Shown piece after piece: positions 103 through 25,526 of a stretch of 25,526 bases of DNA. Within the stretch, counting starts at the first letter, position 1. Every line of letters begins with the position of its first letter. Under the pieces are notes generated by a model that was given only the letters and a program-made list of their open reading frames with translations, did not search any database and was not told the DNA's origin. The stretch spans positions 1-25,526 of the IMG/VR virus record IMGVR_UViG_3300031878_000006. One strand, 5' to 3'. Both the position numbers and the translations under genes were made by a program. This stretch comes from a virus.

Positions 103-690
103 ATGCAACGTGAGTGGCGGTGGGATGACTTGCGTGCCATGGTGGAGCGGTTGGGGCATCGTCGTGTGTTGGCGATGTGTGATCCGCGTGTGGTTCCGTT
201 GTTGTGTGATCAGTTGCAGCGCATTTTGGAGTTGGCGGAGCGTGGTGTGCGTGTGGTGCCTGTGGGCAGTCGGCTGTTTGGTCCTGGTGTTCCGCCTGGG
301 AGTCGCCCTGGGATGAGGATGGGGTGGCGTCCGAGTGGTGATGTGGAGGTGCGAGAGGGTGAGCCGCGTGTGCGGCGTTCCAAGGGGAGGAAGAGTGATG
401 GGCGTGGTGCGTATGCGTTCGAGGTGATCGTGCGTCGTGCTAAGACGCGTCGTGAGCGTGAGAGGTTGAAGAGGGAGGCGAGGCGTGCACAGGCTGCCGG
501 TGGATGTGGTGGAGTTGGCGAGGCTGAGGGTGGCGGTGAGGCGGAGGTTGGGGTCGCGGTCGAGTGTGACGTCGGATGCGGCGGTGGATCGGATCATCGA
601 GGGTCTGGGTCCGGAGGCGCGGGAGGCGATGTTGAGGGAGGAGGTGGACGGGGTTCGGCTGGTGATGAGGAACGGGGTGTTGGTTCCTGA
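103..690 (+). CDS. Unknown protein, possible N-terminal part of small terminase
   Basis: The frame opens with ATG at 103, with a weak GGGG-rich upstream signal and no clear Shine-Dalgarno. The first ~128 residues look coding: they are rich in basic and hydrophobic residues and the codons end mostly in G or T, like the next genes. They end in a strongly charged helical stretch (TRRERERLKREARRAQ). After that, the remaining ~65 residues are Gly/Glu/Val-rich low-complexity sequence typical of an out-of-frame read, and a different frame (485-703) carries the plausible coding signal. The gene sits directly before the large terminase, where small terminase subunits normally lie, but no helix-turn-helix can be pointed to with confidence. 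Either the protein really ends in this tail, or it is joined to the next frame by a +1 shift. Function is assigned by position only. Confidence 0.5.
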   Translation: MQREWRWDDLRAMVERLGHRRVLAMCDPRVVPLLCDQLQRILELAERGVRVVPVGSRLFGPGVPPGSRPGMRMGWRPSGDVEVREGEPRVRRSKGRKSDGRGAYAFEVIVRRAKTRRERERLKREARRAQAAGGCGGVGEAEGGGEAEVGVAVECDVGCGGGSDHRGSGSGGAGGDVEGGGGRGSAGDEERGVGS

Positions 691-703
691 CTGGGTGCTG
701 TGA
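485..703 (+). CDS. Small protein before TerL, possible small-terminase C-terminal part
   Basis: This 72-residue frame starts with GTG at 485, six nt after a good GGAGG motif (474-478). It ends in TGA at 701-703, overlapping the large-terminase start, which is typical of translational coupling. Composition is natural: a basic helical start (VELARLRVAVRRRL), then AAVDRIIEGLGPEAREAML and a hydrophobic end (VRLVMRNGVLVPDWVL). Its first 206 nt lie inside the upstream frame. Frame 2 is open upstream only to about 470 (stop TGA at 467), so the gene cannot extend much further without a frameshift. Two readings fit: a separate gene initiated from GGAGG/GTG, or the C-terminal part of one ~200-aa protein made by +1 frameshifting. 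A role as terminase small subunit or its C-terminal segment is inferred from position only. Confidence 0.6.
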   Translation: MHRLPVDVVELARLRVAVRRRLGSRSSVTSDAAVDRIIEGLGPEAREAMLREEVDGVRLVMRNGVLVPDWVL

Positions 704-2247
704 TGTTCGGTGCGCCGCGTCGTCAGGGTGTGGTGCGGGAGTATCGGCCTGACGGGGCGGTGTTGCGTGCGTTTTTCAAGTCGGATGCGTTGTTTCGTGT
801 GATTCGTGGTCCGGTGGGCAGTGGGAAGAGTGCGGCGTGTTGCATTGAGCTCTTCCGGTTAGCGGTGTCGTATCCGCCGAGTGATGATGGGATTCGGCGG
901 AGTCGGTGGTTGGTGACGAGGAACACGGGTCCGCAGTTGCGGACGACGACGATTGAGACGTTCTTGCAGTGGTTTCCGGACAACAGTCCGTTTGGGCGGA
1001 TGCGGTGGTCTCCGCCGCTGACCTACGAGTTTCGGTTCAAGGATGTTGAGGCGGACGTGCTGTTCATGCCGCTCGATCGGCCGGATCAGGTCCGGGACCT
1101 GCGCTCGCTTGACCTGTCTGGGGCTTGGGCGAATGAGATCAAGGAGCAGTCCAAGGAGATCATTGATGTGATTGACGAGCGGTTGGGGCGGTATCGCCCT
1201 CCTGGGGCGCCGATTCCTCCGCGCAAGTGGTTCATAGCGGACAGCAATGCGTGGGATGCGGATTGCTGGCTGGCGTGGGTGTTTGGTGAGGCGCCGGTGC
1301 CGATGTGGTTGGCGGAGGAGATTCGGTCGGAGTTCCCGGTGCGTCCTCCTGGGTGGGAGCTGTTCCTGCAACCGCCGGCGTTGATTGAGAAGTTCGGGCC
1401 CGATGGGCGGACGGTGGTGGGGTATGAGCTGAACCCGTTGGCGGAGAATATCCGTAATCTGCGGCCCAACTACTACCTGGACCTGATTGTAGGGAAATCG
1501 AAGGCGTACATCGACCAGTACTTGATGAACCGCTTGGTGAGCACTGCGGATGGGATGCGGGTGTATCCGGAGTATGTGGACGACATTCACCTTGTGCGGG
1601 AGCGTCTTGTTCCTGTCCCGAATGTGAAGCTTGTGCTTGGGTTCGACTTCGGTCTGACGCCTGCGTGTGTGGTGCTTCAGGTGGTGAATGGGCAGCGCCG
1701 TGTGTTGCGGGAGTTTGTGTCGTGGAACATGGGGTTGCAGCAGTTTGTGCGGGATGTGGTCCTGCCTGGGCTGCATGAGGCGTTTCCCCAGCACATGGCG
1801 GAGGGGCGGTATGTGGCGTGGGGTGATCCTGCTGGGTCGCAGCGTGCGCAGACGGATGCGCGGACGCCCTTTGCAATTGCTGCCGCTGAGGGGCTGACGA
1901 TCTATCCGGCTGAAACGAACGATCCGGAGGTGCGGCAGGGTGCGGTGCGCAGTCTTCTCATGCAGCGTGTCAACGAGGGCCCTGCGTTGGTGGTGTCGGA
2001 GGATTGTCCGATCCTTCGGTCCGGGTTCTTGGGTGGCTATCGGATGCGTCGGCTGCGGGTCTCTGGGGAGGCTCGGTATGAGATGGAGCCGGTGAAGGAT
2101 CAGTTTTCGCATGTGCATGATGCGTTGCAGTATGCCGTGTTGGGGACTGGTGCGGGGCGGCAGCTGTTGCGTGGTCGGCGCCCTGTGGTGCGTGTGAAGG
2201 CGCCGTCGTCTTATTCCCCTCTTGGTCAGTTTGCGAGTCGCCGGTGA
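700..2247 (+). CDS. Terminase large subunit (packaging ATPase-nuclease)
   Basis: The 515-aa protein is the DNA-packaging motor that docks on the portal, translocates DNA into the procapsid by ATP hydrolysis and cuts the concatemer. The Walker A loop GPVGSGKS is at residues 37-44. A Walker B-like strand with candidate catalytic Glu is in LDLSGAWANE at about 137-146. The C-terminal RNase H-like nuclease shows Asp316 (LGFDFG), Asp376 (AWGDPAG) and Asp474 in HVHDALQYA. Length is normal for the family. Two adjacent starts are possible, GTG 700 and ATG 703; either overlaps the previous stop, and no strong ribosome-binding site is seen, so coupling is likely. Codons favour G or T at the third position (CGT, GTG, TTG), unlike the capsid gene. 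Family is secure; whether packaging is by cos, pac or terminal repeats is not visible. Confidence 0.97.
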   Translation: MMFGAPRRQGVVREYRPDGAVLRAFFKSDALFRVIRGPVGSGKSAACCIELFRLAVSYPPSDDGIRRSRWLVTRNTGPQLRTTTIETFLQWFPDNSPFGRMRWSPPLTYEFRFKDVEADVLFMPLDRPDQVRDLRSLDLSGAWANEIKEQSKEIIDVIDERLGRYRPPGAPIPPRKWFIADSNAWDADCWLAWVFGEAPVPMWLAEEIRSEFPVRPPGWELFLQPPALIEKFGPDGRTVVGYELNPLAENIRNLRPNYYLDLIVGKSKAYIDQYLMNRLVSTADGMRVYPEYVDDIHLVRERLVPVPNVKLVLGFDFGLTPACVVLQVVNGQRRVLREFVSWNMGLQQFVRDVVLPGLHEAFPQHMAEGRYVAWGDPAGSQRAQTDARTPFAIAAAEGLTIYPAETNDPEVRQGAVRSLLMQRVNEGPALVVSEDCPILRSGFLGGYRMRRLRVSGEARYEMEPVKDQFSHVHDALQYAVLGTGAGRQLLRGRRPVVRVKAPSSYSPLGQFASRR

Positions 2248-2813
2248 TCGAGGTTCGCCGGGCGCGGGTGTCGGACATTCCTGCCGGGCTTCGGCTCTAT
2301 GGCGAGGGGCTTGCGGAGGATGGGCGTGGGGTTCGGCTTTCTCCGGCGGCGGCTGGGTTTCTTCGTGTGGTGGTGGAGTGTGACTATGCGGCGGCGTGGC
2401 TGGCGTGGGAGGGTTCCGAGGTTGTGGGGGGTGTGATTGCCCAGGTGGACCCGATGTTTGAGCCCACGTTTGGGGAGGTGGTGAAGCTCTATGTGCGGCC
2501 TCGGTGGCGTGGTGGGCCCGCGGCGACGATGCTTCTGGCGGTGGCTGAGGGATGGGCGTTGCGGAACGGGGCCGTGGCGGTGCATGTTCATGGGCACTTT
2601 GGTGGGCCGGCGCGCGTGGGGTATCAGGCGTTGGTGCGTCGGTGTGGGTATCGGCCTGTGATGTCGGTGTGGGGCAAGGAGGTCGAGCATGGGCAAAATC
2701 TTCAGTCCGAAGCCGCCGGCGCCGCCGCCTCCCGATCCGGAGTTGATCCGGCAGCGGCAGGAGGCGGAGAAGCGGGCTGCGGAGGAGAAGGCGGCGGCGG
2801 AGCGGTGGGCTGA
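2244..2813 (+). CDS. GNAT-family N-acetyltransferase-like protein
   Basis: A 189-aa protein starting at GTG 2244 in a GTGA overlap with TerL. The N-terminus (IEVRRARVSDIPAGLRLYGE) and the central strand-loop-helix VKLYVRPRWRGGPAATMLL (about residues 82-100) match the GNAT fold, where the R-x-R/G-x-G/A region binds the acetyl-CoA pyrophosphate. A later VGYQALVRRCGYRPVMS resembles the usual C-terminal GNAT strand. The family transfers acetyl groups from acetyl-CoA to amines; the substrate here is unknown and could be a virion or host protein. The last ~40 residues are Gly/Ala-rich and overlap the next gene in another frame, so they may be non-functional overhang. Acetyltransferase-like genes near packaging or virion genes are known in several podophages. 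Confidence 0.75.
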   Translation: MIEVRRARVSDIPAGLRLYGEGLAEDGRGVRLSPAAAGFLRVVVECDYAAAWLAWEGSEVVGGVIAQVDPMFEPTFGEVVKLYVRPRWRGGPAATMLLAVAEGWALRNGAVAVHVHGHFGGPARVGYQALVRRCGYRPVMSVWGKEVEHGQNLQSEAAGAAASRSGVDPAAAGGGEAGCGGEGGGGAVG

Positions 2814-2904: not shown

Positions 2905-4490
2905 TGGCAATGCGCTTTGACGCCGACGCGATCCATGGCCGCTATCGCGAGGCGCGGCAGCATCGCACCTCGTATGAGGGCCTGTGGTCGGACGTGCTGG
3001 CGTTGATGATGCCTGGGCGGCGTGACGTCTACAACACGCTGCCTCCGCGGCTGGGCACGACCGAGATCTACGACGACACGGCCGTGATGGCCGTGGAGGA
3101 GTGTGCGGCTCGCTTGCAGTCGGGCATCATGCCCCCTGGGGTCGAGTGGGCCCGGCTGGAGATGCAGGGCGCGGACGAGGAGACGAAGCGGCGTCTTGCT
3201 GCGGTGCAGCGTTACATCTTCGAGCGGCTGTCGTATTCGCGGTTTCAGGCGGCGGTGAACGAGACGCTGCTTGATGCGACGGGCTTTGGCAACTGGCTGA
3301 TGCGTGTGGGGTATCAGCCTGACTTGCCGGGCGGGTTGTTGTTCGAGCCCATTCCGATGACGGCGGTGTGGTTTGCGTCTTGGCACCGGCCGCGTCCGGA
3401 CGCGTTCTACATCCTTGAGAGGCATCGCCCTGGCCAGCTACGGCTCAAGTATCCCCGGATTGCGTTGCCGTCTGACCTTGACGAGACGCAGCCGGTCGAG
3501 GTGATCGAGTTCTGCGAGTTGGAGCCGGACGGCGTGCAGGAGGTGTGGCATCACGGCCTTCTCTTGGTGCGTGGTGTGCCGACCGGCAAGGCGGGCGACA
3601 TACTGTGGAAGCGCGAGTATCGTGGTGAGGGCTCGTGCCCGTTCGTGTGCGGCCGCTGGTCTGTCGCCGCTGGTGACATCTATGGGATCGGGCCGGCCAT
3701 CAAGGCGTTGCCGAGTGTGCGGACGCTCAATGCGGTGGTCGAGAAGCTGCTGCGTGGTGCTGACATCCAGATCAGCGGCTTGTGGCAGGCTGAGGACGAC
3801 GGCGTGATCAACTTTGACACGGTGTCGTTGGTGCCTGGGACGATCTTGCCGGTGGCGCCTGGGTCGAAGGGCTTGCAGCCGATCGGGCATCATGTGCCGG
3901 TTGACCTGACGCAGCTCGTGATCAGTGACCTGAAGGACAGCATCCGGCGTGCGCTCTACAACGACTCTCTGGGGCCGCGTCAGGGCACGCCGCCGACGGC
4001 GTTCGAGGTCGAGGAACGGATGTTGGACCTGGCGCGGCAGATCGGGCCGGCGTATGAGCGTGTGTGGTCGGAGTTCTGTGTGCCGCTCATGTCGCGGCTT
4101 CGGTACCTGCTGGTGAAGGCGGGCATGATCCAGATGCCTGTCATTGATGGGAGGAAGACGCGCGTGGAGCCGACGTCGGCGCTGGCGCGTTCTGGCGCGA
4201 TGGCGCTTGGGAAGCGGCAGGTGCAGCTCGCGCAGACGATTGGGTCGCTGTTCGGGCCGCAGGTGCTGGCGACGGAGATTGATCCGTCGCGGATGACGCG
4301 TGAGCTGGCGCGGCTGTTCGACACTGGCACGTCGATCTTGGTGTCGCCGGAAGAGCAGCGCGCTCGTGGTGCGATGATGGGTCAGATGGCGGCGCAGCTG
4401 GGTGGCGTGCAGGGTGGCGGGGCAGTGGCCCAGGCCATCATGTCGGCTGCGGGCGGCGGTCTTGGTGGCGGGCAGCCGAGGACGTTCTGA
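2904..4490 (+). CDS. Portal (head-to-tail connector) protein
   Basis: The 528-aa protein forms the dodecameric portal at the unique capsid vertex, through which DNA enters and leaves; terminase and tail tubular proteins dock on it. It matches the T7 gp8-like head-tail connector family: an early IYDDTAVMAVEECAARLQSG (about 53-72), YGIGPAIKALPSVRTLN near residue 260 (the family Y-G-x-G-P-A motif) and TAFEVEERM near 365 in the long helix region. A Gly/Gln-rich C-terminus (LGGVQGGGAVAQ, GGGLGGGQ) is usual for the family. ATG 2904 overlaps the previous stop (TGATG). Length is typical. Confidence 0.95.
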   Translation: MAMRFDADAIHGRYREARQHRTSYEGLWSDVLALMMPGRRDVYNTLPPRLGTTEIYDDTAVMAVEECAARLQSGIMPPGVEWARLEMQGADEETKRRLAAVQRYIFERLSYSRFQAAVNETLLDATGFGNWLMRVGYQPDLPGGLLFEPIPMTAVWFASWHRPRPDAFYILERHRPGQLRLKYPRIALPSDLDETQPVEVIEFCELEPDGVQEVWHHGLLLVRGVPTGKAGDILWKREYRGEGSCPFVCGRWSVAAGDIYGIGPAIKALPSVRTLNAVVEKLLRGADIQISGLWQAEDDGVINFDTVSLVPGTILPVAPGSKGLQPIGHHVPVDLTQLVISDLKDSIRRALYNDSLGPRQGTPPTAFEVEERMLDLARQIGPAYERVWSEFCVPLMSRLRYLLVKAGMIQMPVIDGRKTRVEPTSALARSGAMALGKRQVQLAQTIGSLFGPQVLATEIDPSRMTRELARLFDTGTSILVSPEEQRARGAMMGQMAAQLGGVQGGGAVAQAIMSAAGGGLGGGQPRTF

Positions 4491-19323: not shown

Positions 19324-20091
19324 TCAGTCCTTCCGCTTACGCCACCAGAACACGGCGGCAAACACGACGATGGCGCCGATGACAACGAGCGCGGTAACGC
19401 CGCCGCGTTCCAGGATCGGCGCAAGACCCGAGATGGTGGGCGCGACGTGCTCGGCAATGGCGGCGATGGTGGCCACGCCGGCCGTGGCAGCGCCGGTCGC
19501 ACGCACGCTGTCGGTGCGGAGGGCCTCGGCGGCGGGCATCCGCTCGGAAGCCATGCGCAGCGCCTCGGCGCGCACGCGGTCGATGCGCTTTTCCCAGCCG
19601 GGGAAGCTGCCAGCATGGGGCCTAGAGCGCAGGAAGTGCCGGCGCGCTAGGCAGAGGGCCTCGATGACGGCGGTGCGGTCAGCCTCGCGGGCAGCGGCGA
19701 TGGTGACCCTGCCAATGACACCGTCGGCCTTGACGCCAAGGACGCCCTGAAGCCGCTTGGCGGCGGCCCCAGGCCCGCTGTGGACGGCATCATCGAAGAC
19801 GGCGTAGTCGATGCCGAAGGGCAGATCGTCGCCTCGGATGACGTTCCAGTAGCGGGCAAGGTAGATGGCCTTGGCTTCGGCAACCGAGAGGTCGCGGAGG
19901 TCCTCGACGGTGGGCTCGGGGGCGCCGGACTGGCGACGCCAGTCTCGCAGCGTGGCGAGTGTAATGCCGCGGTTGGTGGGCCCGCCAGGATCGTCGGGAT
20001 GATCAACGAAGCCACCCTCTGAACGGAGGACCAAAGCGACGCATCGTTCGAACTTGGGGTTGCTGGGGCCGGAGGACTGAGACTTCTGCAT
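19324..20091 (-). CDS. GH108-type endolysin (muramidase) with C-terminal membrane anchor
   Basis: A 255-aa protein that cleaves peptidoglycan at lysis. The N-terminal domain has SEGGFVDHPDDPGGPTNRGI with candidate catalytic Glu25 in the E-G-G motif and the DPGGPTN-x-GIT loop typical of glycoside hydrolase 108; a second domain around AVHSGPGAAAKRLQGVLGV and KADGVIGRVT resembles the peptidoglycan-binding-type domain usual in this family. There is no N-terminal signal peptide. The C-terminus carries a strong membrane helix (ALVVIGAIVVFAAVFWW, about 234-250) followed by RKRKD, and a weaker hydrophobic stretch at 199-227 that could make a hairpin with it. AAGGAG precedes ATG 20091. The anchor suggests membrane-held enzyme controlled by topology or by the holin. 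Confidence 0.9.
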   Translation of the reverse strand: MQKSQSSGPSNPKFERCVALVLRSEGGFVDHPDDPGGPTNRGITLATLRDWRRQSGAPEPTVEDLRDLSVAEAKAIYLARYWNVIRGDDLPFGIDYAVFDDAVHSGPGAAAKRLQGVLGVKADGVIGRVTIAAAREADRTAVIEALCLARRHFLRSRPHAGSFPGWEKRIDRVRAEALRMASERMPAAEALRTDSVRATGAATAGVATIAAIAEHVAPTISGLAPILERGGVTALVVIGAIVVFAAVFWWRKRKD

Positions 20092-20278
20092 CGGCGTCTC
20101 CTTCGTCGCAGTTGGTGAGCAGCACGTCGTGCGGCCCGACGCTGATGATCACCACGCGCTGGTGCTCGGGGACGCCGAAGCACGGCGGTATGGCGACGAT
20201 GGGGGGCAGCGTGGCGCGCTGCGCACATGCACCACATAGCACAAGGGCGATGGCAAGGGCTACAGGTGTGCGGGTCAT
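20003..20278 (-). CDS. Small exported or lipoprotein-like protein of the lysis region
   Basis: A 91-aa protein with ATG 20278 and a GGAG about nine nt upstream. The N-terminus TRTPVALAIALVLCGACAQR is a signal peptide; the Cys in C-G-A-C could be lipidated, though the -3 residue is not the usual Leu/Val. The mature part has a short beta-like core (RVVIISVGPHDVLLTNCDEG). The last ~29 residues lie in another frame over the start of the endolysin and are Arg/Pro-rich, so they may be overhang. It could be a lysis regulator or an envelope protein; no family was recognised. In-frame read-through further upstream is not likely to be coding. Confidence 0.55.
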   Translation of the reverse strand: MTRTPVALAIALVLCGACAQRATLPPIVAIPPCFGVPEHQRVVIISVGPHDVLLTNCDEGDADAEVSVLRPQQPQVRTMRRFGPPFRGWLR

Positions 20279-20293
20279 GATGAGGGCTCCGGT

Positions 20294-20325
20294 GGGCGGA
20301 GCGGGTGCGGTGACTCGCTCCGCCC
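20294..20325 (-). promoter_or_regulatory. 13-bp hairpin between DUF932 and the lysis genes
   Basis: GGGCGGAGCGGGT at 20294-20306 pairs with ACTCGCTCCGCCC at 20313-20325 (one G-T pair) around a 6-nt loop. It fills most of the 55-nt gap after the DUF932 stop. The leftward side lacks a U-tract, so it is either a weak terminator, an RNA-processing/stability element, or an attenuator separating the recombination genes from the lysis genes. Confidence 0.6.
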
Positions 20326-20333
20326 GTTGAGGG

Positions 20334-21206
20334 TCAGTGGGTGAGGGCCGCCCAGGCGTCGGACTCGATCGCCTTGGCGACGCGGAGCTCGCGGTCAAAG
20401 CGCGTGGACTGCCCGCCCTTGGCAGGCACCGCGTGGGTGGCCCAGGCGGTCAGGACGTTGTAGAGGGCCCACAAGGTCTCGCCGTTGTTGGGGCCGTCAG
20501 ACGTTGCCGCGCGCAGCCACTGCGTCGTGAGGTGCTCGACGAGCGCCGTGGTGGACTGGGGAATGGCACGGAACACGCGCTCGACCTGCTCGGCGTGGTG
20601 GATGGGCGAGATGCGGATGTTGTGCCAGTGTCGGAACCGCTGCGCCTCGACCTCAAACTGCTCGGCAGCGTGGACGAGCGTGGTCGCGACCTTGTGAAGG
20701 TCGAGCGCCACGCTGCCGTTGATGTGCTTCATCTTGAAGGACGCGAACTCCTTGCCAACGACGCAGGTGTTGGCGCAGACGAAGTTGAAGGCGCCGCTCA
20801 TGCCTTTGAAGGCAACGGTTCCGTCGTAGGAGTTGAACATCAGGAGCCGCAGCGCAACGCGCACGCGCGGTGCCACCTCCACCATGTGGGCGGGGAGCAG
20901 GTATTGGCGGAACACGCGCGCACCGCCGTTGGCGTAGTCGGTGGCGATGCGCATCCCGTTGAGATCGAGGGACGAGTTGCGGAGGGCGTCCTCGAAGGCG
21001 CCGAACGCCTCCTCGTTGGTGATGAGCTTGTAGCTGTCGGTGTGCACGGCGAGGACGGTGCCGGTGTCGTCGCGCTGCACGCGCTTCCAGCCGGGGAGCT
21101 CCATGCCGCGCTCGTCGTAGACGGGGCGGACGGACACGGGGAAGAACTGCGGCTTGGTGTGGTTGGCGGGCACGAAGCCGTAGCGGTCAAGAACGTCGTC
21201 GGACAT
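20334..21206 (-). CDS. DUF932 family protein
   Basis: A 290-aa protein with ATG 21206 and AAGGAGAC upstream. The sequence matches the phage/plasmid DUF932 family: an N-terminal YGFVPANHTKPQFFPVSVRP, then TDSYKLITNEEAFGAFEDAL, later FNSYDGTVAFKGMSGAFNFV and CANTCVVG, and a C-terminal NNGETLWALYNVLTAWATHA with the last R-F-D-R-E-L-R. The family is widespread on plasmids and phages, and its function is not established in general; it often lies near DNA-metabolism or anti-restriction genes. It is the last gene of the recombination half of the operon, followed by a strong hairpin and then lysis genes. No catalytic residue can be named. Confidence 0.88.
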   Translation of the reverse strand: MSDDVLDRYGFVPANHTKPQFFPVSVRPVYDERGMELPGWKRVQRDDTGTVLAVHTDSYKLITNEEAFGAFEDALRNSSLDLNGMRIATDYANGGARVFRQYLLPAHMVEVAPRVRVALRLLMFNSYDGTVAFKGMSGAFNFVCANTCVVGKEFASFKMKHINGSVALDLHKVATTLVHAAEQFEVEAQRFRHWHNIRISPIHHAEQVERVFRAIPQSTTALVEHLTTQWLRAATSDGPNNGETLWALYNVLTAWATHAVPAKGGQSTRFDRELRVAKAIESDAWAALTH

Positions 21207-21232
21207 GACAGTCTCCTTGGTGGGTTGGTGGT

Positions 21233-21328
21233 GCACGGATCGCCGTGCGGGGCGGAAGCAGTGCGGGTCCCCCTGCTTCTGGGGATTGGGTCACCTCGCG
21301 CGCTGCGCGGACAGAGCGCGCACGCGAG
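21233..21328 (-). promoter_or_regulatory. Structured leader upstream of the DUF932 gene
   Basis: The 131-nt gap 21207-21337 has three stem candidates: GCACGG 21233-21238 with CCGTGC 21243-21248 (4-nt loop); GAAGCAG 21255-21261 with CTGCTTC 21273-21279; and GCGCGCT 21298-21304 with AGCGCGC 21315-21321, with outer CTCGCG 21295-21300 and CGCGAG 21323-21328 as an alternative. No U-tract follows, so these are not standard terminators. They may control DUF932 expression or protect processed mRNA. Pairings are seen; function is inferred. Confidence 0.4.
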
Positions 21329-21337
21329 CGTTGCGTG

Positions 21338-21712
21338 TTATGGCGGGCTCGCGTCGGAATCGTACGCGAGTGAGTCGAGGGCGTCTTGAATGGCGGCCAC
21401 GATCTCGTCGTCGGTCTCTGCCCGCATCAGGTTGTGGGCGATGCGGTAGACGAGCCGCGGCTTCCAGCTGTTGCCGAACATGATGGTGATGAAGCACGGA
21501 GGCGTGGTCTCGGCAATGTCGGGGTCTTGTGGCTCAAGCCAGGCGGACGTCAGGTAGGAATAGGGCTCGCGGGATGCGTGAAGCGCCTCGATTTCTTGGC
21601 GACGCTCGGTAAGGAGGTCAGTGAGCTTGTCCTTGAGGGCGTCGAGGACCGCCTCCGACATGGTCTGATTGGAGATGATCGTGACGGTGCCGCGGTTGTT
21701 GTGGGGCTTCAT
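21338..21712 (-). CDS. Unknown acidic 124-aa protein after SSB
   Basis: The likely start is ATG 21712 (MKPHNNRGTVTIISNQ), 13 nt after the SSB stop; upstream sequence in the same frame is shadow of the SSB gene. A helical N-terminal half (LDALKDKLTDLLTERRQEIE) is followed by a mixed part with W/F/Y residues (SREPYSYLTSAWLEPQDPD, PCFITIMFGNSWKPR) and an acidic helical end (AETDDEIVAAIQDALDSLAY). No family was recognised. Position in the recombination operon suggests a DNA-metabolism accessory, perhaps acting with SSB, but nothing in the sequence proves it. Confidence 0.7.
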   Translation of the reverse strand: MKPHNNRGTVTIISNQTMSEAVLDALKDKLTDLLTERRQEIEALHASREPYSYLTSAWLEPQDPDIAETTPPCFITIMFGNSWKPRLVYRIAHNLMRAETDDEIVAAIQDALDSLAYDSDASPP

Positions 21713-21725
21713 GGCGGGCTCTGGG

Positions 21726-22169
21726 TCAGAACGGGATTTCGTCGTCCAGGTCAATGATGCGGTGGCCTGCCTTGGGTGGCGGTTCGAGGACGGCGGTCGC
21801 GGGCGCGCTAGCGCCGTTCTTGCTCGAAAGCAGAAGGAGTTGGCTGCTTCCAAAGGGGCGGACGACGATTTCGGTGATGGTCCGCTCGTTGCCATCGCGG
21901 CCAGTGTACTTGCGGGTTTCGATGGTGCCGCGCACGAGCACGCGGCTTCCCTTCTTAAGGTATTGCATGGCGAGCTTTTGCGCGAGTTCGTCAAGAACGA
22001 CCACGTTATGCCACTGAGTGACTGACTTGGGCTCGCCGGTGGTCTTGTCCTTCCAGTTGCGATTGGTCGCAAGTGAGAAGCTGACGATAGTGCCGCCGTT
22101 CTGGAAGCTGCGCTGTTCGGGGTCGCGGCCGAGGTGGCCGATGAGCAGCGCTTCGTTGAGGTCTGCCAT
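21726..22169 (-). CDS. ssb: Single-stranded DNA-binding protein
   Basis: A 147-aa protein that covers single-stranded DNA during replication and recombination. The OB-fold signature is clear: NEALLIGHLGRDPEQRSFQN at the start, SFSLATNRNWKDKTTGEPKS, QWHNVVV, then KKGSRVLVRGTIETRKYTG. The C-terminal tail ends DLDDEIPF, the acidic tip that bacterial SSBs use to recruit partner proteins. ATG 22169 has GGAGC upstream; further upstream sequence is not coding-like. The 128-nt gap 22170-22297 to the annealing-protein stop holds no gene and only weak hairpins. Part of a recombination set with the annealing protein and the exonuclease. Confidence 0.95.
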   Translation of the reverse strand: MADLNEALLIGHLGRDPEQRSFQNGGTIVSFSLATNRNWKDKTTGEPKSVTQWHNVVVLDELAQKLAMQYLKKGSRVLVRGTIETRKYTGRDGNERTITEIVVRPFGSSQLLLLSSKNGASAPATAVLEPPPKAGHRIIDLDDEIPF

Positions 22170-22297
22170 GGGGTGCTCCATTTGTGTGCGTGGGTGCGGT
22201 CTCTCCCTGCCGTCACGCCTGCTTTGGTGGGCGTTCACCTTCCGCGCCGTCCGCTCGGGGGACCTGGAACAAGCGGCGGGCGGATTGGTGCGACGGA

Positions 22298-23095
22298 TCA
22301 CTCCGCCGTCTGTGTCGTGGTGGCCTGGGCGGCGAGCTGCGCGGCTGCGGTGGCGCGGGCAAGCGCCTCATTGGCGGTGGCCTTGATACTCTCGATGAGG
22401 TGCTCGTGGCCATAGCGTCGTGCTTTGTCCGCAAGCGCCGCGATTTCGGGCCGCAGCGCCCGAAGAGTTGGAAGATCCGCGCCTTCGATGCGCTGCTTGA
22501 GGGCGGCCCAGGCATTGTTGAGCTCGGCGGCGGTGGGCGGTGGGACGGCGCCGTGTGGCGCGTCGGCGATGCGATTGTCCTCCCACGTTGCCTCGGCTTG
22601 GGAGACGTACTTGTTGTCGTCGAACAGGCCGAGGTGGACGTCTGCGGCAACGCCGATGAGCGACGCTGCCTTGGTGAACCCGTCCGTCAGGGACTTCTTG
22701 GGCGCCTCCTCGTCGGTGAACAGCCCGTGCTGGTTCTTGCCGACGAAGGTGGTCTGGCCGAAGTGCCGCACGACGCACTTGGTGGTCGTCTTGGGCGGGA
22801 TGTACCACACGGCGACTCGCAGGACGTGCACGATGGCCTTTGTGCCCGTCTGTGGGTCGAGCACATGGCCTTCGACGTAGCGCTCGTCCTCGATCTCGAT
22901 GCCCCAGCCTAGGCCGCAGGGGCCGAAGGCGGCGGTCATGCGTGCGGCAATCCATGTTGGGTTGATGGCGGTGCCGCTGAAGCCGCCGCTGCGCTTGAAC
23001 TGCTTGGTGTAGGCGGGGTCGGGCGTGCGGAGGTATTCGAACAGGGCGAGGTTGCGCTTCTGGCGCTCGGGATCGACGAGGAAGTCTTCAGCCAT
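22298..23095 (-). CDS. Rad52/Sak-like single-strand annealing protein
   Basis: A 265-aa protein with ATG 23095 and AAGGAGAC upstream. The core has NPTWIAARMTAAFGPCGLGW then GIEIEDERY, a beta segment with VHVLRVAVWYIPP, and TDEEAPKKSLTDGFTKAASL followed by IGVAADVHLGLFDDNKYVSQ (about 127-166). This order, with a G-x-x-W pair near the start and the A-x-K-K-x-L-T-D-x-x-T-K-A-A helix, is that of phage Rad52/Sak-like annealing proteins, which pair complementary single strands. The C-terminal ~90 residues are helical and Ala-rich. Together with the PD-(D/E)XK exonuclease and SSB it makes a complete two-component recombinase set. An ERF-family assignment is a less likely alternative. Confidence 0.78.
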   Translation of the reverse strand: MAEDFLVDPERQKRNLALFEYLRTPDPAYTKQFKRSGGFSGTAINPTWIAARMTAAFGPCGLGWGIEIEDERYVEGHVLDPQTGTKAIVHVLRVAVWYIPPKTTTKCVVRHFGQTTFVGKNQHGLFTDEEAPKKSLTDGFTKAASLIGVAADVHLGLFDDNKYVSQAEATWEDNRIADAPHGAVPPPTAAELNNAWAALKQRIEGADLPTLRALRPEIAALADKARRYGHEHLIESIKATANEALARATAAAQLAAQATTTQTAE

Positions 23096-23396
23096 TGGGT
23101 GTCTCCTTCCTGAACCGTGTGGCGATGAAGACCTGCTCCATGCGCCCACGCGGGTTGGGGCGCTGGCCGGCGACGACGACGGCGCCCATCTGGGACAGTT
23201 CGGTGAGGCGCGGCTTCACCGAGTAGACCCACGCGCCGATGGCGTCGGCGATCTCGCTGCCGGTGGCGCCATGTGGGCCGCTGTTGACGATGACGCGGTG
23301 CACCTGGTCGATGAGGCGCTCGACGTGCGGTTGGATGTCAGCGGCGGCGCGCGCCTCCGTCTCGGTCGGGTTGGCGTGTAGGTAGACCTTGGGCAT
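23088..23396 (-). CDS. Winged-helix-like protein of the recombination operon
   Basis: A 102-aa protein with ATG 23396 and AAGGAG upstream; longer in-frame sequence is shadow of the neighbour. The middle reads VERLIDQVHRVIVNSGPHGA then TGSEIADAIGAWVYSVKPRL then TELSQMGAVVVAGQRPNPRG, the order helix, helix-turn-helix, wing of a winged HTH, resembling the small regulators or accessory DNA-binding proteins of phages. The stop overlaps the annealing-protein start by 8 nt, so translation is probably coupled. Function beyond possible DNA binding is unknown. Confidence 0.72.
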   Translation of the reverse strand: MPKVYLHANPTETEARAAADIQPHVERLIDQVHRVIVNSGPHGATGSEIADAIGAWVYSVKPRLTELSQMGAVVVAGQRPNPRGRMEQVFIATRFRKETPNG

Positions 23397-23430
23397 GTGG
23401 GGGGCTCCTTGGTGTTGTGGGCGGCGTGGT

Positions 23431-24033
23431 TCATGAGGCCGCTTGGGGTGTGAGGCGCTCTGCGAGCGTGCGCACCAGCAGGTCAAAGGCGTCGCGCCAC
23501 TGGCGATAGCTGGCGCTTGTGCGATCGCGCGGCTGCTCCTGGGCCCAGTCGCAGATGAGCTCGCGGAGCGCGCTGTCGTCGAGCGAGCGGGGGTCGATCT
23601 CGTACTCGACGCTGGCGTGAGGGTCGTCGACGGCGTCGTGCGTGGTCGGCAGGTGGATGGGGATGCGCTTGCGTACGGGCCAATGCACCTCGCCTTTGGC
23701 GTGCGCCACGTCGTCGATGCGCTCGATGCACTTCTGGGCGCCCTCGATGATCTCCTCGAAGACGCGGCGCTGCCAGGTGCACACGGTCATCGAGGCCATG
23801 GCAAATGCCATGCCGCGATAGTTGTTCCTGGCGTTTTGCCAGCGCGCGCGCTCCTCAGGCGGCGCGTTGTCGGGCGGCTCGAGCTGGGCTGCGTCGTGGC
23901 TGGACTGCGGGCAGGCGAGGCAAATGCGCAGCTCGGGCGCGGGATGGTGACGGACGTTGTCGTTGTCCCCAAGAGGCATGGGCCGGGAGGGGGCGATTGT
24001 GGTCGTGACGATGTAGTTACCCTGCGTGGTCAT
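23431..24033 (-). CDS. Unknown 200-aa early protein
   Basis: ATG 24033 with GGAGGAC upstream is the best start (MTTQGNYIVTTTIAPSRPMP). The N-terminal ~55 residues are extended and include a CLAC pair; the middle has NARNNYRGMAFAMASMTVCT then WQRRVFEEIIEGAQKCIERI, helical; the C-terminal part is acidic then helical (SLDDSALRELICDWAQEQPR and RQWRDAFDLLVRTLAERLTP). No family was recognised. It lies between the exonuclease side and the annealing-protein side of the operon, so a replication or recombination accessory is a guess only. The stop is followed by a short 34-nt gap. Confidence 0.68.
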   Translation of the reverse strand: MTTQGNYIVTTTIAPSRPMPLGDNDNVRHHPAPELRICLACPQSSHDAAQLEPPDNAPPEERARWQNARNNYRGMAFAMASMTVCTWQRRVFEEIIEGAQKCIERIDDVAHAKGEVHWPVRKRIPIHLPTTHDAVDDPHASVEYEIDPRSLDDSALRELICDWAQEQPRDRTSASYRQWRDAFDLLVRTLAERLTPQAAS

Positions 24034-24298
24034 TGATCGTGTCCTCCGTGGTGACGATGTGGCGGCACGCATCGTCGAGGGCGTCGGCCTCTGCCGCGAG
24101 GCAATCGAGAAGGATGGCGTCGTCGCACTGGTGCGCGAGCCATTGGAGGGCGTACCGTGCGCCCTGGGCGTAGGCGAGCAGGAGGTCATCGCGGCCAAGG
24201 CGGCGGTCGCGGTCGGACGCGAAGACGCCGCGCGCCATGGCGCGGGCGAGGCTGCGGACGCGCTGTGCTGGTCCGGTGTAGCATGGGTCGTCGGTCAT
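24017..24298 (-). CDS. Small unknown 93-aa protein after the exonuclease
   Basis: ATG 24298 overlaps the exonuclease stop in ATGA, with AGGAGA upstream. The sequence is helical: QRVRSLARAMARGVFASDRD then DDLLLAYAQGARYALQWLAH and an acidic end (LDCLAAEADALDDACRHIVT). The last residues overlap the next gene by 17 nt. No family was recognised. Coupling to the exonuclease suggests a partner or modulator, but there is no direct evidence. Confidence 0.7.
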   Translation of the reverse strand: MTDDPCYTGPAQRVRSLARAMARGVFASDRDRRLGRDDLLLAYAQGARYALQWLAHQCDDAILLDCLAAEADALDDACRHIVTTEDTINDHAG

Positions 24299-25143
24299 TG
24301 GTCGATCTCCTGGAGGATGGTGGCGGGCGTCTCCTCACGCGGGAACACCTGAATGGCATTGCTTGCGGTGCGCCGCATGACGACGAGCGGTGAGTGGAGG
24401 ATGCGGGCCTCAGGCGGCATCAGCTTGGCGAGCAGCGCCTGCACCTCGTTGTGGCGCTTGGCCGTTGCGCGCGTGGCGCGCCACTCGCGCGCCAAGCCCT
24501 CGAACGGCGTGTTGTGCAGCACTGTGGCGGGGAACACGCCGAACTGGCTCAGGTCGATGCGCAGTCGTTTGCGCTGTTGCGTCGTCTCCGGCGTCTCGGG
24601 CATGTCCCACGGTGGGATGTCGGCCTCGAGCATCCGCCGGAAGGTGGCGACACGCTCGACGAGAGCGTCGATGTCAGACTGCTGGACAGTCAGCGCCTTC
24701 CAATGCCACGTCGCCTCGGCGCGGCCGATGACAGAGAAGGCGATGTTCCGGATTCCGCTGAGGATCGAGTAGCCGACCATTTGCGGCCAGTAATGTTGAG
24801 CGGAGACGGAAAGCGGTGCGTTGCCGTGAAGGATTTTGCCCTCGAAGACAAAGGGTGTGCCATCCTCGAAGGAGCCGAAGCCGTCGAAGCCGCTTGTGGT
24901 GATGCCGACGCGTTCGTCGGACAGGCGAATCGTGCCGGCACCGGGGTCGTCGAGGACCGTATAGCCCGTCTGCTTTGCAAACCACTCGCGGTGAAACGGC
25001 TCGAGCGCGAGCCCGATTGCGACGGCGAGCGGATTGGAGGGTGGCTCTTCAATCCCCAGCTTGTAGATGTTCCAGAGTTTGGCCTCGCCTTCAGGTGTGG
25101 CGAGCAGGGGCAGATGCGAGCAGCGGATCAGGGGCGCGGCCAT
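24295..25143 (-). CDS. YqaJ/lambda-exo-like PD-(D/E)XK exonuclease
   Basis: A 282-aa nuclease likely to resect double-stranded DNA ends so that the annealing protein can load. The active-site pattern is visible: Glu48 in LALEPFHREW, Asp87 in TTSGFDGFG, then FVFEGKI with Glu101 and Lys103 (the E-x-K of PD-(D/E)XK), and QHYWPQMVGYSIL with Gln121, the motif found in YqaJ and lambda exonuclease-type enzymes. The C-terminal half is a long Arg/Ala-rich helical part. ATG 25143 has AAGGAGCT upstream and overlaps the previous stop (TGATG). Assignment to YqaJ versus other lambda-exo-like branches is uncertain, the nuclease fold is not. Confidence 0.88.
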   Translation of the reverse strand: MAAPLIRCSHLPLLATPEGEAKLWNIYKLGIEEPPSNPLAVAIGLALEPFHREWFAKQTGYTVLDDPGAGTIRLSDERVGITTSGFDGFGSFEDGTPFVFEGKILHGNAPLSVSAQHYWPQMVGYSILSGIRNIAFSVIGRAEATWHWKALTVQQSDIDALVERVATFRRMLEADIPPWDMPETPETTQQRKRLRIDLSQFGVFPATVLHNTPFEGLAREWRATRATAKRHNEVQALLAKLMPPEARILHSPLVVMRRTASNAIQVFPREETPATILQEIDQ

Positions 25144-25463
25144 CAGAATAGCTCCTTGCGGATGGTGCGGATTGTGGCGGCGATGCGGTCCGCCACGGTC
25201 TCTGCATCGAGCGCCGCGCGACGGATGATGGCGGGGTCGACACCGCGCTCGGCAAGACTGGCGATGAGGCTGAAGACGGCGTCCCGGACCTCGTCGACGA
25301 GCTCCTGGGTGCGCTGCGCGTAGTCCTCGCGCTGCTGCGCGAGGAGCGCTTCGTATTCATCGGCAGCAATCGGGTCAGTGATAGGGTCGCGCACAAGGTC
25401 CTCTATGGGACGGTCGAGGTGATGCAGGTATGCATCATTGTTGGGCGTGTTGCAAGTGTTCAT
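25143..25463 (-). CDS. Small helical protein upstream of the exonuclease
   Basis: A 106-aa protein; ATG 25463 is preferred because GGAG lies about seven nt upstream, with ATG 25475 as an alternative without such a site. The sequence is acidic and helical (EDLVRDPITDPIAADEYEAL then REDYAQRTQELVDEVRDAVF, and PAIIRRAALDAETVADRIAA), with no enzymatic motif and no recognised family. It is the first gene of the visible - strand operon; its promoter would lie at or beyond the right edge. Positions 25476-25526 show no gene. Confidence 0.68.
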   Translation of the reverse strand: MNTCNTPNNDAYLHHLDRPIEDLVRDPITDPIAADEYEALLAQQREDYAQRTQELVDEVRDAVFSLIASLAERGVDPAIIRRAALDAETVADRIAATIRTIRKELF

Positions 25464-25526
25464 CTTGTTCTCCATGGTTGGGTGGCGGACGGCGTCCCGG
25501 CGAGCGCCGCCCTCACCCGAGGAGGG

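What the first reader, a model, noticed from the sequence alone, without database searches (positions are those of the whole stretch)
103..703. Two-frame locus before the large terminase: overlap or +1 frameshift
Frame 103-690 looks coding only to about 480, then becomes Gly/Val/Glu-rich low complexity, while frame 485-703 starts to look coding at the same point and ends in a perfect overlap with TerL. GGAGG lies at 474-478, six nt before GTG 485. Such an internal Shine-Dalgarno can either start a new gene or stimulate frameshifting. The two parts together would be about 200 aa, a reasonable small-terminase size. A sequencing or assembly error is a third option.
Basis: partly seen in the sequence, partly recalled or inferred. 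Interest (0 to 1): 0.6.

Follow-up and report, generated by a model that had tools for sequence, protein, structure and literature searches.

The report
Two overlapping phage genes, no frameshift
The two reading frames in front of this phage's DNA-packaging motor gene are two separate overlapping genes, the second being a small protein found in the same place in dozens of related marine phages, so no ribosome slip or sequencing error is needed to explain them.

Summary
In detail: coding signal moves from frame 1 to frame 2 near 480-500, GGAGG lies 6 nt before GTG 485, and the second frame ends in the TerL start (GTGATG, 700-705). The interpretation resolves to two genes. The second frame (485-703, 72 aa) belongs to a family of about 64 aa found, as its own gene before TerL, in 76 of 77 TerL relatives with enough upstream sequence and in Pelagibacter phage Hodr. 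Its start is conserved (64 of 84 relatives at one position, the window one codon away). Genes upstream of it belong to many unrelated families, in all three phases. The two nearest relatives (TerL 75% identical) show the same two overlapping frames, so an error is very unlikely. Selection in the overlap acts on the second frame (dN/dS 0.21), not visibly on the first (2.1; small counts). Tail identity in the first frame (26%) is what the second gene alone would produce. Neither part is the small terminase: canonical TerS genes lie elsewhere in most relatives, including about 6 kb upstream of TerL in the nearest. The Gly/Val/Glu-rich tail is an out-of-frame overrun read from gene 2's G-rich third positions. 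Ordinary, apart from an unnamed small TerL-neighbour family.

The parts
103..690 (+). Gene 1: clade-specific protein of unknown function. The conserved part is about 103-480; the rest (about 485-690) is an out-of-frame overrun across gene 2.
   Evidence: Homologue only in L002/L003 (38% identity before the overlap). L002/L003 dN/dS 0.39 before the overlap and 2.1 in it. Low-confidence model with a tail pLDDT of about 33-54.
474..478 (+). Shine-Dalgarno GGAGG for gene 2
   Evidence: 6 nt before GTG 485; AGGAGG 9 nt before the aligned ATG in L002 and L003.
485..703 (+). Gene 2: stand-alone small helical protein (72 aa), member of a conserved family next to TerL
   Evidence: Family in 76 of 77 TerL relatives with more than 250 nt upstream; Hodr WDQ27535.1; dN/dS 0.21; helices 8-28, 31-39, 43-53, pLDDT 80.
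485..690 (+). 206-nt region where both frames are open
   Evidence: Gene-1-frame identity to L002 0.26, equal to the 0.27 expected from gene 2 alone.
700..2247 (+). Large terminase subunit (GTG 700 or ATG 703; overlaps the gene 2 stop codon)
   Evidence: phrog_2 E=8.5e-21; tblastn to Hodr 41% and BcepC6B 38%.

Best explanation
Two independently translated, overlapping genes. Gene 1 is translated from ATG 103 to TGA 688. Ribosomes start again inside it at GTG 485, using the internal Shine-Dalgarno GGAGG, and make the 72-aa gene 2 protein, whose stop overlaps the TerL start so that TerL translation can be coupled to it. In many relatives the upstream gene stops at or within a few nt of the gene 2 start (the 4-nt ATGA-type overlap is commonest). 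In this GC-rich clade the upstream frame has no stop there and overruns gene 2 without apparent constraint. Shown: gene 2 is a conserved, separate gene under purifying selection with a conserved start. Inferred: use of the internal SD, the coupling, and a role of the gene 2 protein near TerL, most likely an accessory of packaging that is not the TerS.
For: (1) The gene 2 family lies as its own ORF before TerL in 76 of 77 viral TerL relatives with enough upstream sequence, in 8 genome-contig loci and in Hodr. (2) Its start is at one conserved position in 64 of 84 relatives; the window's start lies one codon from it. (3) The upstream gene belongs to many unrelated families, in all three phases, most often with a 4-nt overlap; no relative outside the clade has more than 54 aa of open frame before the match; in six, 129-1021 nt separate gene 2 from the TerL match. 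(4) L002 and L003, from other assemblies, repeat the layout with AGGAGG before an ATG. (5) dN/dS in the overlap is 0.21 in the gene 2 frame and 2.1 in the gene 1 frame. (6) Gene-1-frame identity in the overlap is 0.26 observed and 0.27 expected from gene 2 alone.
Against: The dN/dS in the overlap rests on 13 substitutions. Gene 1 has only three sequences, two of them close. The gene 1 frame stays open in both sub-lineages, which has a chance of about 12-14% per lineage; shared ancestry makes them non-independent. No expression data.
Confidence: 0.94

Rival explanations
1. A programmed +1 frameshift near 470-500 fuses the two parts into one protein of about 200 aa, with GGAGG as stimulator.
For: The relative phase (+1) and the upstream GGAGG are the same in the window and in L002/L003.
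Against: Gene 2 is a complete separate gene in the other relatives, with many unrelated upstream genes in all three phases. Its own start codon is conserved. No slippery motif was seen by eye at the junction, and frame 1 has no stop there to favour a shift. The same phase in three related phages follows from descent.
Confidence: 0.03
2. A sequencing or assembly indel near 480 splits one gene into two frames.
For: The abrupt change of coding frame is what an indel would give.
Against: Two relatives from other assemblies (TerL 75% identical) have the same two frames. In the other homologues gene 2 is a separate gene.
Confidence: 0.01
3. Both frames are selected in the overlap: the Gly-rich tail of gene 1 is a functional domain encoded on top of gene 2.
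For: The frame stays open to near the TerL start in both sub-lineages (206 and 221 nt).
Against: dN/dS 2.1 in the gene 1 frame; dS of gene 2 (0.147) is little reduced against TerL (0.188); tail identity equals the expectation from gene 2 alone; the tail is predicted with low confidence.
Confidence: 0.05
4. Gene 2 (or gene 1) is the small terminase subunit of this phage.
For: Position directly before TerL; a small helical protein.
Against: No TerS family match. TerS (phrog_2538) is found elsewhere in 26 of 30 records, and Terminase_2 over its cut-off in 17 of 30. L020 and L102 carry both a Terminase_2 protein and gene 2. A TerS-like gene lies about 6 kb upstream of TerL in the L002 contig.
Confidence: 0.06

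Closest known systems
Pelagibacter phage EXVC031P Hodr gene WDQ27535.1 (64 aa, hypothetical protein; OQ414635)
   Same: Homologous to gene 2 (35% over 48 aa, E=2e-8 pairwise), directly before TerL and overlapping its start.
   Different: In Hodr the upstream gene is unrelated and overlaps by only 4 nt; gene 2 here has a clade-specific C-terminal extension.
Out-of-frame overlapping phage genes with an internal Shine-Dalgarno
   Same: A downstream gene starts from an internal SD inside the upstream frame.
   Different: The upstream frame shows no sign of selection in the overlap, so this is an overrun rather than dual coding.
Phage small terminase subunits (PF03592 Terminase_2; phrog_51, phrog_2538)
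   Same: Neighbourhood of TerL.
   Different: No sequence match; canonical TerS coexists with gene 2 in relatives.

Membership tests
Programmed +1 frameshift gene | The two parts are encoded as one product, in two frames or one, in homologues | tested here: not met
   Gene 2 is separate in homologues, with varied upstream genes and phases.
Programmed +1 frameshift gene | Conserved slippery site at the junction | tested here: inconclusive
   No such motif seen by eye in window 470-512 or L002 2236-2300; 6 against 9 nt from SD to start. No systematic scan made.
Programmed +1 frameshift gene | Fusion protein detected | not testable with these tools
   Needs mass spectrometry or ribosome profiling.
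Overlapping gene pair | Downstream frame has its own conserved start with a ribosome-binding site | tested here: met
Overlapping gene pair | Downstream frame under purifying selection | tested here: met
   dN/dS 0.21 (13 substitutions) and 50% protein identity to L002.
Small terminase subunit (TerS) | Match to a TerS profile | tested here: not met
Small terminase subunit (TerS) | It is the only TerS candidate of the genome | tested here: not met
   TerS elsewhere in 26 of 30 relative records and in Hodr. The window's own TerS is not in the 25.5 kb held, which begins 700 nt before TerL.
Gene 2 family (small TerL-neighbour protein) | Profile match, position before TerL, length of about 60-78 aa | tested here: met
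   Profile E=3.9e-11 in the final round, the window sequence being in the seed; 72 aa, overlapping the TerL start.

The most novel reading that the evidence does not exclude
The gene 2 family is an unrecognised, nearly universal third component of DNA packaging in a large clade of marine podophages, made with TerL and distinct from TerS.
Probability: 0.3. Interest if true: 0.45.

Novelty: new member of a known kind. Interest (0 to 1): 0.2.

Why it matters
It removes a false frameshift or small-terminase candidate. It shows how G-rich, GC-rich phage genomes produce long out-of-frame gene tails that look like Gly/Val/Glu-rich domains. It also points to a small protein family next to TerL, present in 76 of 77 TerL relatives checked, that Pfam and PHROGs did not name and that only one isolate in the 50,697-record phage set was found to carry.

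Tried and rejected
PHROGs and Pfam scans of both frames found nothing. tblastn of gene 1, gene 2 and two of three relatives of gene 2 against 50,697 phage records found nothing; the Hodr gene found only itself and L016's homologue found Hodr. Profile search of PDB sequences gave only chance hits. Foldseek against PDB found nothing; against viral models only weak matches to unnamed 60-63-aa proteins (E about 0.6, probability 0.77-0.87), probably the same family but not checked. The gene 1 model was too poor to search. A literature search for programmed frameshifts with the small terminase gave one paper, which was not read. Sequencing error was rejected through L002/L003.

Full report
What is in the sequence. 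Frame 1 runs from ATG 103 to TGA 688-690; frame 2 is open from 470 to TGA 701-703, with GTG 485 as its first start, 6 nt after GGAGG 474-478. TerL starts at GTG 700 or ATG 703, on top of the frame 2 stop. A codon score trained on other genes of the window changes sign between the two frames near 480-500.

Why the tail of frame 1 looks odd. In gene 2 78% of third codon positions are G. Read in frame 1 these become first positions (77% G), which forces Gly, Val, Glu, Ala and Asp codons. The tail needs no function of its own: 26% identity to L002 in that frame, 26.6% expected if only the gene 2 proteins are kept and synonymous codons are redrawn. Between L002 and L003 the overlap has dN/dS 2.1 in the gene 1 frame and 0.21 in the gene 2 frame; gene 1 before the overlap has 0.39 and TerL 0.04 (the overlap has only 13 substitutions). 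That frame would stay open by chance in 12-14% of comparable stretches.

Relatives. A scan with the window TerL gave two loci at 75% identity, L002 and L003, from two other IMG/VR assemblies. Both repeat the arrangement: an upstream frame open to near the TerL start, and gene 2 in the +1 frame with AGGAGG 9 nt before ATG. The nearest isolate by TerL is Pelagibacter phage Hodr (41%). Its 64-aa gene directly before TerL, with its own ATG and a 4-nt overlap with an unrelated upstream gene, is homologous to gene 2.

A family. A TerL alignment gave 80 more viral and 79 genome-contig loci. An iterated profile found gene 2 in 76 of the 77 viral loci with more than 250 nt before TerL, and in 8 genome-contig loci. 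In 64 of 84 the start lies at one position; the window's start is one codon away. The upstream genes fall into many unrelated families, in phases 0, 1 and 2, most often with a 4-nt overlap (34 loci). Upstream genes were taken as the longest nearby ORF, so a few assignments may be wrong. In six loci 129-1021 nt lie between gene 2 and the TerL match. Outside the window's clade the longest open stretch before the match is 54 aa, so none is fused to a long upstream domain. This pattern fits an independent gene and not the second half of a frameshifted one.

Not the small terminase. No TerS profile matches either part. L020 and L102 have a Terminase_2 protein as well as gene 2 upstream of TerL; L103 has an HTH protein matching phrog_2538 there. 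Among 30 records, 26 match phrog_2538 and 17 pass the Terminase_2 cut-off; Hodr is in both sets. phrog_2538 also rings in 10 of 14 control genomes at this threshold, so its weak hits count for little. In the L002 contig the match lies about 6 kb upstream of TerL and has a TerS-like C-terminus. The window begins 700 nt before TerL, so its TerS is probably off the contig (inference).

What gene 2 may do. The model (pLDDT 80) has three helices and, in this clade, a C-terminal hairpin. No solved fold matches. Its constant company with TerL suggests a packaging accessory; this is inference.

An internal parallel. The acetyltransferase gene 2244-2813 shows the same thing: its profile match ends at residue 151 (about 2696), where the next gene starts at ATG 2689 behind AGGAGG, and the remaining tail is Gly/Ala-rich. 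In L002 the same pair overlaps by only 4 nt (4454-4457). Long out-of-frame tails arise easily in this genome.

Verdict. Two overlapping genes; no frameshift, no error, not a small terminase.

Noticed in passing
window 2244-2813 and 2689-2904: Second case of the same kind: the acetyltransferase frame overruns the next gene by 125 nt with a Gly/Ala-rich tail, while in L002 the two genes overlap by only 4 nt.
   Followed up: partly
window about 20-100; L002 about 1575-1660: The leader before gene 1 looks alike in the window and L002 (AGGGGAGGGG-AAAAA, then TGATTT-CCTCCCAAC or ATGATTTTTCCCCCCAAC): a possible promoter or regulatory region. Seen by eye only.
   Followed up: no
L002 about 1300-1560: GC-rich, repeat-like stretch (CGCGGCGGCC and similar) upstream of gene 1.
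   Followed up: no
L002 contig (G001) 23774-23986, minus strand: TerS-like gene about 6 kb upstream of TerL, so the two terminase genes are far apart in this clade.
   Followed up: partly
window 19324-25475, minus strand: Convergent block: endolysin, SSB, an exonuclease-family protein (phrog_7838) and a RecE-like exonuclease.
   Followed up: no
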